A stretch of 64,000 bases of DNA from Ridgeia piscesae (taxonomy: Eukaryota; Annelida; Polychaeta; Sabellida; Siboglinidae). How positions within the stretch are numbered: position 1 is the first letter of the stretch; the number at the start of each line of letters is the position of its first letter. The stretch is from positions 72,001-136,000 of the forward strand of contig JAODUO010000481.1 in NCBI GenBank assembly GCA_025642075.2. The letters are read 5' to 3'. Below the pieces are notes generated by a model. That model was not told where the DNA came from. It searched no databases and saw nothing but the letters and a program-made list of their open reading frames with translations. The translations under genes were made by a program, and so were the position numbers. Shown one piece after another: positions 6,301-12,300 of this stretch.

Positions 6301-9300
6301 CGGCTTCGTTTCTTCGGTAAGTTTTTCACGTTTATACCAACAATTCTGTGACCCAAATGTATTTGTTTCGGCAAATTACTGTATTTAAAGCCGCACCCCA
6401 ACTTTGGCGTTTTCGTCCTCATTTCGGCTACACACTACTGTATTAGTAGCCGCGGCTAGTAATACAGGATTTACGGTAACCAAATTGTAAGTATTTGATA
6501 ATAAAGAGAGAAACAAGGGATGTAGTCAGTTAGTCTGATGGGACTGAGTGATGTTATTCCTTCTTCAAAACACCAACCGGAATTGAGACACTTACAGCCT
6601 TTTCCCGGATGAGATACTCGAAGGCCACTTTCTCCTTGCGCAGGGCCGTCAGATAGCGCTGCTCCTCTGTCGAGCCCGTGTACATGAGGAAGTAGACGCG
6701 CAGAGACATTGTGGGACGTGTCGCCCGGAACACCTACAACCACAGGAACCAACGTGGGAGAATGACACTGTTTCATCTTACCTCACAGAGGAAATGAACA
6801 TCACATAAATGATGTCATAAAAGCTAAATACCTCCCACGACAGCTGACACATCTGAATTACACTAGCCATTGAATGACAAACTAGTTAGAGTTTAAAGGA
6901 ACATGCAACCGAACGATCAAAAGCCCTCAAAATCCCACTTACCATTCCACATGGTATATTGTCACATGGTATATTGTCACATACATATTTTTTGCTTAAT
7001 TTTATATGAATGTTATGCACCTTAAAACTATCTTCAAAACATACATTTGGTTTGACTATGGGCACTGTCATTGTTGCCCAATTCACGAGGAATTCACGAA
7101 GAGTAACACGATATTGATGATTATGATGTAGACTGTCCACTACTCTCAGCAATGCAGGCCATGCATAATGACTAATAGTACCCCATCGACATGATTTAAG
7201 TTGCTTATATAAATCTACCATTAACAAAATACCTGAGTGTCAGACATACGGATGCAAAAACAAAGCTTCTTCCAGATTCCAAATGTGAAAATTGTTTCCA
7301 CTGAAGCGTGAGTTGGCAAAAAAATGGCTGCGCAACATTGGTACAGACCACACAGTGGCCAAATTTCAACTTCAACCAAACGACGACAATTTTACTGTGA
7401 ACTTGAATTCACTGAACTAACTAACTTTATCAAATTCAAAAACAATTCTGCACCAAAAATTATGCCACTGACATGTACAAATAAAGAACACACAACATGA
7501 TGTCTAGTCTTGCACCGAAAAATTACAAACTCAAGACATGGGCCCACAAACTTGTTTTTATTTCATCACGAATGTAAAAAGCTCACCTCAAGCTGTCGCA
7601 CGAATGTGACGTCTGCATCGTAGAGAACCACAAAGCTAGGCTGGAGCTGATACAAGGTGTGCAGGAGACTGTTTGGGTCGGAGAGGCCGTGGAGAGGGTG
7701 GAGCATTGTGAGAGGACAGGTGAGGACTCCGCAGTACGCGTCCAGAGAGTCGACAGTGAATGCACTCGCCGCCCCCTCTTTCTAACATTGCAAAAATATA
7801 TTTATTAGCCATATTTAAAAAACATAACCTTTCAGTAAATATACTACCAGACTGTCCCCAATACACACCCTAATAAAAGCACACCCCAATTTAATAGTAA
7901 CATTGATGTTTTCACTCCTGAAATACATTTTTGCGTTTTCTCCGTTTTGTGAAATGTGCACATATGAATCGCCACTTTTATAGTTGATGCATCACTGGTT
8001 TTTCTTAAAATAACTGAAAATGGAATGTACATAACAGACCTGGGGTAATTTATTTAAACATTTATTATATTACAAGTTTATTAAATTACATACTGGTAGT
8101 TCTTAATTGCTTTATCAGTAAAATAAAATATGTATTGACATAACCCACACACCTTTTCATTATCAGCTGTCTCCTCTTTGCCCTTGTCTATGTCCACCAT
8201 CTGGGTCAAGGTCATGCTATTATCACTTGTTGTTGTCTTTGACTTTGCAGAACCTCTTTTTGGTTTCATCCTCTGTTATATTCACGCAAAACATGTTTCA
8301 TGTACATTTTAAATAAATGCAGGTAAGAGCAGTCGTTTAAATTTGACCAGCTCTATCGTGTATCACATCTGCTTTCAACTGATGTCTCATCAACAACACG
8401 ACCGGTAGTCACATTTATCATTATATATCATTTATGACAATACACACGTTATGTGAAAGTATTATTACAATTAACAGGTAATACCACGGCTCTATTTGTT
8501 TAAGCGATAATAAATAAACTGTTTAACACATTTAAAATTCACAACAAACGTTGAATCAAAAAGTTATCACAGCTGTAATTACTGGCACCAAGATAGTCAC
8601 CAGCCTGAGTATTACCTGGTCACTGCCCTGTCTCATGTCCTGTGTATTACCTGGTCACTGCCCTGTCTCATGTTCTGTGTATTACCTGGTCACTGCCCTG
8701 TCTCATGTCCTGTGTATTACCTGGTCACTGCCCTGTCTCATGCCCTGTGTATTACCTGGTCACTGCCCTGTCTCATGTCCTGAGTATTACCTGGTCACTG
8801 CCCTGTCTCATGTCCTGTGTATTACCTGGTCACTGCCCTGTCTCATGTCCTGTGTATTACCTGGTCACTGCCCTGTCTCATGTCCTGTGTATTACCTGGT
8901 CACTGCCCTGTCTCATGCCCTGTGTATTACCTGGTCACTGCCCTGTCTCATGTCCTGTGTATTACCTGGTCACTGCCCTGTCTCATGTCCTGTGTATTAC
9001 CTGGTCACTGCCCTGTCTCATGTCCTGTGTATTACCTGGTCACTGCCCTGTCTCATGTTCCTGTGTATTACCTGGTCACTGCCCTGTCTCATGTCCTGTG
9101 TATTACCTGGTCACTGCCCTGTCTCATGTCCTGTGTATTACCTGGTCACTGCCCTGTCTCATGTCCTGTGTATTACCTGGTCACTGCCCTGTCTCATGTC
9201 CTGTGTATTACCTGGTCACTGCCCTGTCTCATGTCCTGTGTATTACCTGGTCACTGCCCTGTCTCATGTCCTGTGTATTACCTGGTCACTGCCCTGTCTC

Positions 9301-12300
9301 ATGTCCTGTGTATTACCTGGTCACTGCCCTGTCTCATGTTCTGTGTATTACCTGGTCACTGCCCTGTCTCATGTCCTGTGTATTACCTGGTCACTGCCCT
9401 GTCTCATGTCCTGTGTATTACCTGGTCACTGCCCTGTCTCATGTCCTGTGTATTACCTGGTCACTGCCCTGTCTCATGTCCTGTGTATTACCTGGTCACT
9501 GCCCTGTCTCATGTCCTGTGTATTACCTGGTCACTGCCCTGTCTCATGTCCTGTGTATTACCTGGTCACTGCCCTGTCTCATGTCCTGTGTATTACCTGG
9601 TCACTGCCCTGTCTCATGTCCTGTGTATTACCTGGTCACTGCCCTGTCTCATGTCCTGTGTATTACCTGGTCACTGCCCTGTCTCATGTTCTGTGTATTA
9701 CCTGGTCACTGCCCTGTCTCATGTCCTGTGTATTACCTGGTCACTGCCCTGTCTCATGTCCTGTGTATTACCTGGTCACTGCCCTGTCTCATGTCCTGTG
9801 TATTACCTGGTCACTGCCCTGTCTCATGTCCTGAGTATTACCTGGTCACTGCCCTGTCTCATGCCCTGTGTATTACCTGGTCACTGCTCTGTCTCATGTC
9901 CTGTGTATTACCTGGTCACTGCCCTGTCTCATGTCCTGTGTATTACCTGGTCACTGCCCTGTCTCATGTCCTGTGTATTACCTGGTCACTGCCCTGTCTC
10001 ATGTCCTGTGTATTACCTGGTCACTGCCTTGTCTCATGTCCTGTGTATTACCTGGTCACTGCCCTGTCTCATGTTTTCCGGGTGTTTATTACCTGGTCAC
10101 TGCCCTGTCTCATGTCCTGTGTATTACCTGGTCACTGCCCTGTCTCATGTCCTGTGTATTACCTGGTCACTGCCTTGTCTCATGTCCTGTGTATTACCTG
10201 GTCACTGCCCTGTCTCATGTCCTGTGTATTACCTGGTCACTGCCTTGTCTCATGTCCTGTGTATTACCTGGTCACTGCCTTGTCTCATGTCCTGTGTATT
10301 ACCTGGTCACTGCCCTGTCTCATGTCCTGTGTATTACCTGGTCACTGCCTTGTCTCATGTCCTGTGTATTACCTGGTCACTGCCCTGTCTCATGTCCTGT
10401 GTATTACCTGGTCACTGCCCTGTCTCATGTCCTGTGTATTACCTGGTCACTGCCCTGTCTCATGTCCTGTGTATTACCTGGTCACTGCCCTGTCTCATGT
10501 CCTGTGTATTACCTGGTCACTGCCCTGTCTCATGTCCTGTGTATTACCTGGTCACTGCCCTGTCTCATGTCCTGTGTATTACCTGGTCACTGCCCTGTCT
10601 CATGTCCTGTGTATTACCTGGTCACTGCCTTGTCTCATGTCCTGTGTATTACCTGGTCACTGCCCTGTCTCATGTCCTGTGTATTACCTGGTCACTGCCC
10701 TGTCTCATGTCCTGTGTATTACCTGGTCACTGCCTTGTCTCATGTCCTGTGTATTACCTGGTCACTGCCCTGTCTCATGTCCTGTTTATTACCTGGTCAC
10801 TGCCCTGTCTCATGTCCTGTGTATTACCTGGTCACTGCCTTGTCTCATGTCCTGTGTATTACCTGGTCACTGCCCTGTCTCATGTCCTGTGTATTACCTG
10901 GTCACTCCCCTGTCTCATGTCCTGTGTATTACCTGGTCACTGCCCTGTCTCATGTCCTGTGTATTACCTGGTCACTGCCCTGTCTCATGTCCTGTGTATT
11001 ACCTGGTCACTGCCTTGTCTCATGTCCTGTGTATTACCTGGTCACTGCCTTGTCTCATGTCCTGTGTATTACCTGGTCACTGCCCTGTCTCATGTCCTGT
11101 GTATTACCTGGTCACTGCCTTGTCTCATGTCCTGTGTATTACCTGGTCACTGCCTTGTCTCATGTTCTGTGTCTTCTCCAGAGCCCGTGTAACGTGGCCT
11201 GGCCTCCTTTCCATTACCTGGTACTGCCTGGACAACATCACGTTGTTTTTGGTACTTTGTCAACAGACCTAATGACTCCCTGACTCTGTCAGCAGTACCT
11301 TTACATACTCAGGTCACAATAACTTTTCACCTCTTATTATGAACAACGTACTGCATTGTAAGGATTAGCCTGGTCACTGCCCTGTCTCATGTCCTGTGTA
11401 TTACCTGGTCACTGCCTTGTCTCATGTCCTGTGTATTACCTGGTCACTGCCTTGTCTCATGTCCTGTGTATTACCTGGTCACTGCCCTGTCTCATGTCCT
11501 GTGTATTACCTGGTCACTGCCTTGTCTCATGTCCTGTGTATTACCTGGTCACTGCCTTGTCTCATGTTCTGAGTCTTCTCCAAGAGTCGAGTCAACGTGG
11601 CCTGGCCTCCATCACACAGGTACTGATGGAACAACAAACACGTTGTATTGTACTTGTAACAAAGCAGACCAAATAATGACTACTGACTCTGTCAGCAGTA
11701 CCTTTACATACTCAGCGAGAAATAACTTTTCACCAATCTTAAATGAACAAAAAGTACTGCATTGTAAGGATTAGCTTGTACGGAAGTCTTACATGTCACA
11801 TCAATCACAGCTGATATATAGGGCATATAGACCAATTCCTTTGATTGTATTTAATTAACTTTAGGCACAGTAAATTTGTTGCCAAGCATTGTTTGTTTGC
11901 GCTGGTATCAATCGCATTTGTCTCCTGCCAGTTCGCTGTGGCTTCCACGAATGGTTGCCTTCGCCGGCTTGTAAATGGCAATTAAATTGCTTACGAATCG
12001 GGCAGTGATATTGAAATGGCAGGCTAACAGTTATGTCATGTTTTCATTAAGTCTATGAAAAAAACATTTACTTGTGCGTAAATATATGAATTCATCAACT
12101 GCATATGAACCGCAGTAGCCTCGAACCATGGTGAATTGCATTATAAATCGGCACTGTAAATGTGCGATCTAAATTTATATTTTGGGATTGATTGAAAGAT
12201 GAAATCAAGCCAATAGTGAGCGCAACTACTATAGGTATATATATGACCCACTTCAGCAACATGTCAATTCATTTGTGTTTCGGCTACTGAGTTCAAGGTT

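What the first reader, a model, noticed from the sequence alone, without database searches (positions are those of the whole stretch)
8606..11622. A minisatellite built from an exon-intron border: about 78 tandem copies of the ERCC4 exon 13 splice donor
Seen directly: the 35-bp unit equals the last ~23 nt of exon 13 plus the first ~12 nt of its intron, so every unit offers an identical CAG|GTAATA donor on the gene strand. The real exon 13 border is unit 1 of the array. Any donor beyond the first would retain a unit and meet TGA after five codons. The splicing machinery must pick the first of dozens of equal sites, or tolerate nonsense-mediated loss. Length polymorphism could tune XPF expression. 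I know of no described case, though I cannot search.
Basis: partly seen in the sequence, partly recalled or inferred. Interest (0 to 1): 0.88.

Follow-up and report, generated by a model that had tools for sequence, protein, structure and literature searches.

The report
Seventy-eight copies of one splice donor
In what is very likely the deep-sea tubeworm Ridgeia piscesae, the border between one exon of the DNA-repair gene ERCC4 and its intron is repeated so that the same splice donor occurs 78 times within about 3,000 bases; splicing likely still uses the first copy, and use of a later one would add a stop codon, which makes this an extreme relative of a known human case and a natural test of how cells choose among equal splice sites.

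Summary
The 35-nt unit is the last 23 nt of ERCC4 (XPF) exon 13 plus 12 nt of intron, and it carries 78 identical CAG|GTAATA donors. The exon is real: a 20-exon GT-AG model matches human XPF and an annotated Ridgeia piscesae protein. Only the first donor of each exon copy keeps the frame; the other 76 add VIHRT-stop. Of 1336 other GT sites in the gene's introns, 3 pair with U1 as well. Both flanking introns exceed 3 kb, so exon definition likely picks the nearest, first donor (rule from PMC9225289). The kind is known: human IFI6 has a minisatellite with several donors, and PMC2812944 reports repeats at exon-intron boundaries. New are the size, the built-in stop, and recurrence in one genome: mitofusin (donor and acceptor) and a TRAF7-like gene. 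Counts in the genome show no clear bias towards donors. No RNA data were available.

The parts
172..24218 (-). ERCC4/XPF gene, exons 1-20 of a manual model; the gene continues beyond the window
   Evidence: 20 exons, all GT-AG, 755 codons open; human XPF 6sxa E 1.2e-268; further exon at C481:67152-67487
11545..11622 (-). Exon 13, 78 nt, phase 0 at both ends; its last 23 nt are the exonic part of unit 1
   Evidence: encodes YLCDGGQATLTRLLEKTQNMRQGSDQ, first two thirds conserved
11371..11571 (-). Array block 1: five full donor units and a broken sixth
   Evidence: donors after 11545, 11510, 11475, 11440, 11405
11164..11371 (-). Second copy of the end of intron 12 plus the start of exon 13; the other copy is 11566-11777
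   Evidence: 181 identities, 14 mismatches, 30 gap columns
11143..11223 (-). Exon 13b, 81 nt, open, conserved motif lost; internal CAG|GTAATG near its start
   Evidence: part of annotated protein P0001; acceptor score 3.78 against 7.99 for exon 13
8604..11165 (-). Array block 2: 73 donor units
8273..11544 (-). Intron 13, 3272 nt, mostly array
8153..8272 (-). Exon 14 with the common acceptor; its acceptor has the lowest score of the 19 real acceptors (-3.34)

Best explanation
A 35-nt minisatellite whose unit is the border of ERCC4 exon 13 and its intron repeats one splice donor 78 times, and splicing likely still uses the first copy, because exon definition would pair the exon's acceptor with the nearest of many equal donors, while a later donor would add a stop codon. 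Shown: unit, count, gene, reading frames, the second exon copy, and the U1 pairing of each donor relative to the gene's other sites. Inferred: the array grew by ordinary slippage or unequal exchange that began at the exon border, in a genome where about a tenth of the sampled bases lie in minisatellites; one border stayed joined to the exon, so the gene kept working. Only the first five donors would give exon 13 a length under 300 nt. A later duplication carried the end of intron 12, exon 13 and six units downstream and made 13b, whose first part no longer encodes the conserved motif; 13b is likely skipped or added as a tolerated 27-residue insert. Rare use of later donors would feed nonsense-mediated decay.
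For: 78 donors, none mutated among the 78 units. Exon 13 encodes a segment conserved in human XPF and 6 other lophotrochozoan sequences. The donor's U1 duplex energy of -8.1 kcal/mol ranks 5th of the gene's 20 donors, and a small leave-one-out matrix also ranks it 5th; 3 of 1336 other GT sites in its introns are as strong. Flanking introns are 3052 and 3272 nt, far above the 250 nt at which PMC9225289 places exon definition; in its minigenes with two identical donors 52 nt apart the upstream donor was chosen exclusively (passages and section 6). Donor 5 gives an exon of 218 nt, donor 6 one of 480 nt (from the coordinates). The annotated protein joins exon 13 and 13b each at its first donor. 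The exon 13 and block 1 RNA shows no unusual fold (z 0.65). In block 2, 0 of 361 AG sites reach the score of the 13b acceptor.
Against: No RNA reads were available, so donor choice is predicted. The rule rests on human data, and the classical intron-centric rule cited in the same paper would favour the donor nearest exon 14. The annotated protein is a prediction with visible errors (it lacks exon 10, for example), and its locus tag number suggests the same assembly as this window, so it confirms neither copy number nor 13b independently. The donor is not optimal: +5 is T, not G. That 0 of 13 distinct variants fell in the donor 9-mer (P 0.021) could mean the copies are kept for use; homogenisation explains it too.
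Confidence: 0.66

Rival explanations
1. The array is a splicing rheostat: a share of transcripts uses later donors, meets the built-in stop and is destroyed, so that array length sets XPF level.
For: Use of a later donor always stops the frame; the donor 9-mer is invariant in 78 of 78 units while 13 variants hit other positions; human IFI6 uses downstream repeat donors.
Against: Identical donors in long-intron minigenes gave the upstream donor only. The invariance test is weak and homogenisation within arrays explains it. No length or expression data.
Confidence: 0.12
2. Copy number or the 13b copy is partly an assembly artefact of error-prone long reads.
For: The 13b flank differs from its partner by many short gaps (14 mismatches, 30 gap columns) and parts of it resemble the unit; the matching annotated protein is probably from the same assembly.
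Against: 193 bases of block 1 match the head of block 2 without a mismatch, in that register only of 67 tried; the variant order along the array is irregular, not copied; no N in the window.
Confidence: 0.15
3. Minisatellites in this genome start preferentially at splice junctions (transcription- or splicing-linked origin).
For: Junction-spanning arrays also in mitofusin (donor and acceptor) and a TRAF7-like gene; three CAGGTAAT in tandem: 1105 matches against 565 for the reversed control.
Against: CAGGTAAGT: 685 against 623. 0 of 35 arrays in 20 sampled regions hold a donor 7-mer. Random placement of five of the gene's arrays touches an exon in 67% of trials. The mitofusin donor array was found by its likeness to this one.
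Confidence: 0.1
4. Exons 13 and 13b are an alternative pair that makes two XPF forms.
For: 78 and 81 nt, both phase 0; 13 only, 13b only, both or neither all stay open (755, 756, 782, 729 codons in the modelled part).
Against: 13b has lost the conserved LCDGG...LxRL motif and has a weaker acceptor (3.78 against 7.99; 85 of 937 other intronic AGs score as high).
Confidence: 0.05

Closest known systems
[quoted passage not shown]
   Same: A minisatellite supplies repeated splice donors at an exon end (title in reference lists; passage in PMC4526556).
   Different: There, two downstream repeat units are used and give three mRNAs. Here there are 78 donors, later donors add a stop, and an exon copy lies inside. 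The 1995 paper is not held, so its unit and copy number were not seen.
Internal tandem repeats at exon-intron boundaries in human segmental duplications (PMC2812944; abstract and passages seen)
   Same: Minisatellites at exon-intron boundaries; 27 intron modifications after manual inspection.
   Different: Those average 30-bp units repeated 4 times and are described as forming novel introns; here an existing donor of a conserved gene is repeated 78 times.
Competition of identical donors under exon definition (PMC9225289; passages and section 6 seen)
   Same: Identical donors compete for one acceptor across an exon with long flanking introns.
   Different: Two engineered donors there, a natural series of 78 here.
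Intronic minisatellites linked to multiple splicing decisions in C. elegans (PMC4039745; passages seen)
   Same: Minisatellites in introns near splicing decisions.
   Different: They hold candidate regulatory motifs, not the splice site itself.

Membership tests
Minisatellite | Head-to-tail array of units of roughly 10-100 bp | tested here: met
   35 nt, 84.1 copies, 92% matches
Donor-providing minisatellite (IFI6 type) | Unit overlaps the exon end and repeats the donor | tested here: met
   78 CAG|GTAATA, the first at the exon 13 border
Donor-providing minisatellite (IFI6 type) | More than one unit serves as donor in transcripts | not testable with these tools
   No RNA reads held
ERCC4/XPF | Alignment along the protein including the nuclease domain | tested here: met
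   6sxa: residues 1-755 to 15-817, E 1.2e-268
ERCC4/XPF | Exon 13 encodes a segment present in relatives | tested here: met
   YLCDGGQATLTRLLEKT aligns with human XPF and 6 other lophotrochozoan sequences; the unit-derived end lies in a variable linker
Dispersed or mobile repeat | Unit present at other loci | tested here: not met
   75 of 75 hits with up to 2 mismatches in this array
Mutually exclusive exon pair | Both copies keep the conserved coding sequence | tested here: not met
   13b lost the conserved motif
Mutually exclusive exon pair | Only one copy per transcript | not testable with these tools
   No RNA; the annotated protein holds both

The most novel reading that the evidence does not exclude
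This tubeworm genome repeatedly amplifies its own splice junctions: donors in ERCC4 and mitofusin and acceptors in mitofusin and a TRAF7-like gene have become minisatellites, and exon definition makes them tolerable by choosing the copy joined to the exon, so that array length becomes a fast-evolving dial on nonsense-mediated loss of key genes.
Probability: 0.12. Interest if true: 0.86.

Novelty: new member of a known kind. Interest (0 to 1): 0.6.

Why it matters
Splice-site choice is usually studied with two competing sites. Here 78 donors with the same 9-mer and nearly the same surroundings stand in a row in a gene needed for DNA repair, and the reading frame reports every wrong choice. Ordinary RNA-seq of this animal would show directly whether nearest-across-the-exon or nearest-across-the-intron wins, and how far a donor can be from the acceptor. 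Mitofusin in the same genome offers a second donor series and an acceptor series. If later donors are used, a fast-changing repeat would control a repair nuclease.

Tried and rejected
RNA structure hiding later donors: MFE z 0.65 and low accessibility at all 78 copies as at five other exons' donors; rejected. Base pairing between arrays of different introns: ten pairs, lowest shuffle P 0.01; not convincing after ten tests. Units acting as small exons: 0 of 361 AG sites in block 2 reach the 13b acceptor score. Plus-strand reading frames (up to 887 aa): a 600-base piece found no homologue; taken as chance. Dispersed repeat: rejected. Rfam 0 and tRNA 0 matches in the window. Other tubeworms: the two XPF searches list the best 120 of 2066 and of 614 hits, and Ridgeia is the only tubeworm named there, so no relative's array could be compared. 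13b as independent proof from the published Illumina assembly (PMC9921365 sections 5, 12-15): dropped, because the locus tag NP493_480 and contig C481 suggest that the protein was annotated on this assembly. The earlier idea that donors seed arrays genome-wide: lowered.
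Full report
What is there. TRF reports a 35-nt array at 8604-11571 with 84.1 copies. Read on the minus strand the unit is ACATGAGACAGGGCAGTGACCAG|GTAATACACAGG. It holds 78 CAGGTAATA; the rest of that strand of the window has 1 and the plus strand 2. The finding's count of about 78 is exact.

The gene. A manual model of 20 exons on the minus strand, each with AG before and GT after (exon 1 starts at ATG), gives 755 open codons. 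It matches human XPF along residues 15-817 with E 1.2e-268. Exon 13 is indeed the thirteenth exon: 11622-11545, 78 nt. It encodes YLCDGGQATLTRLLEKTQNMRQGSDQ. The first part aligns with human XPF and with 6 other lophotrochozoan sequences; the end, which is made by the repeat unit, lies in a variable linker. The best protein match is annotated as Ridgeia piscesae, 93% over the query. The exon pieces align without difference apart from positions at exon ends and in stretches where the two gene models differ. The species is therefore very likely Ridgeia piscesae. The gene has one locus in the 628-Mb genome: 20 of 20 matches lie on contig C481.

After five donors the array stops and the end of intron 12 is repeated, followed by a second copy of exon 13, which I call 13b (11223-11143, 81 nt), and then 73 more donors. 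The two flanks share 181 identities with 14 mismatches and 30 gap columns. The first 193 bases of the two array blocks have no mismatch, and of 67 registers tried only the head of block 2 gives zero. So the duplication seems to have copied exon 13 together with six units. Either exchange kept the arrays alike while the flanks diverged, or the flank of 13b suffers from assembly error; the many short gaps leave that open. 13b still reads through, but its first part no longer encodes the conserved motif. It also has a donor-like CAG|GTAATG six bases in.

Consequences. In the modelled part, exon 13 alone gives 755 open codons, 13b alone 756, both 782 and neither 729. Of 5 donors after exon 13 only the first is open, of 73 after 13b only the first, and of 73 joining exon 13 to block 2 none. 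The printed peptides end VIHRT*. Thus 76 of 78 donors lead to a stop.

How strong are the copies. The U1 duplex energy of CAGGTAATA is -8.1 kcal/mol, 5th of the gene's 20 donors. Among 1336 other GT sites in its introns 3 are as strong. A small leave-one-out matrix also ranks it 5th of 20. So the copies are serious competitors, not decoys in name. Folding gives no sign that later ones are hidden. Among 13 distinct variants in the units none hits the donor 9-mer (chance 0.021) nor the surrounding 14-mer (0.0013, chosen after looking). Homogenisation or use could explain that.

How splicing likely copes. Introns 12 and 13 are 3052 and 3272 nt. PMC9225289 places the change to exon definition near 250 nt. 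It reports that with equal donor scores the upstream donor is preferred when introns are long, and that in its minigenes with identical donors 52 nt apart the upstream donor was chosen exclusively (passages and section 6). The same paper recalls the older intron-centric rule that would favour the last donor. Donors 1 to 5 give exons of 78 to 218 nt; the sixth would give 480 nt. I therefore expect donor 1 to dominate. This is inference; no RNA was available.

Is it unique in this genome. The unit is: 75 of 75 hits with up to 2 mismatches lie in this array. The kind is not. A DNA search with exon 13 and block 1 gave 63 rows, 23 on C481 and 40 on three other contigs with different arrays. One, on C726, is a 31-nt array that starts at a donor of mitofusin: exon ...LTEDQPQPLSVQ|GTAATA, next exon SISGLAHAL... 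(PDB mitofusin-2 E 4.5e-32). It has 18 CAGGTAA, 11 of them CAGGTAATA; distal units have lost the GT. Translating 6 of its later donors gave VITHR* each time. In the same gene a 30-nt array with 11 TATATCTCAGT ends in the acceptor of the exon SAVQTKFEQHT... (where that stretch alone has E 0.002). Beside the C266 array a 91-nt unit repeated 4 times carries CTTCAG|GTGTGGAG, the acceptor of an exon that reads like TRAF7. That name is recalled; Pfam WD40 matched only below its cut-off.

Against a general process. In 20 sampled 10-kb regions (172,500 readable bases) 35 arrays cover 19,677 bases; 0 of 35 units hold a donor 7-mer, 0.62 expected. Three CAGGTAAT in tandem: 495 + 610 matches against 341 + 224 for the reversed control. 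Three CAGGTAAGT: 331 + 354 against 398 + 225. Matches count overlapping triples, so long arrays dominate, and the tables list only the first places. With arrays this dense, five of the gene's arrays placed at random touch an exon in 67% of trials. So chance plus tolerance suffices, and the mitofusin donor array was found because it resembles this one.

Compared with what is known. Human IFI6 has a minisatellite that provides multiple splice donors; two downstream units are used and three mRNAs result (the 1995 paper itself is not held). PMC2812944 reports 27 intron modifications from repeats at exon-intron boundaries in human duplicated genes. Paper searches for the combination and for tubeworm minisatellites listed no case in ERCC4 or in a tubeworm; they cover open-licence PMC papers only. 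I file this as a new, very large member of a known kind.

Noticed in passing
window 1-155 and L012 3559-6100: A 40-nt array starts 17 nt after the donor of ERCC4 exon 20 and runs about 2.7 kb.
   Followed up: partly
window 2898-5529, 12812-13864, 18726-20071: Three further minisatellites (65, 42 and 20 nt) lie in ERCC4 introns 16, 12 and 6.
   Followed up: partly
window 53702-58198 and 62615-63658, minus strand: Long ORFs of 663 and 834 aa and, upstream, a CARD domain (Pfam E 7.6e-16). They recall a SAMD9-like innate immunity gene; that name is recalled, and the piece tested had no Pfam match.
   Followed up: partly
window 34790-36352 and 36904-40880, plus strand: ORFs that look like a LINE reverse transcriptase and a Gypsy-type retroelement (recognised by eye).
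   Followed up: no
L014 6099-6506: Mitofusin acceptor array: 11 TATATCTCAGT, the last being the real acceptor.
   Followed up: yes
L018 1453-1817, minus strand: 91-nt unit repeated 4 times that spans an acceptor and about 60 nt of exon of a TRAF7-like gene.
   Followed up: partly
G000 contig C96:138991-140912, minus strand: Array of a 46-nt unit with CAG|GTAAGT whose printed stretch reads like coding sequence before the donor; a possible further junction array.
   Followed up: no
L011 201-893: A 23-nt array abuts a stretch that could be a coiled-coil exon on the minus strand; the neighbouring bases are withheld.
   Followed up: no
window 8609-11272, plus strand: The array is open in plus-strand frames for up to 887 codons; a 600-base piece has no homologue.
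   Followed up: partly
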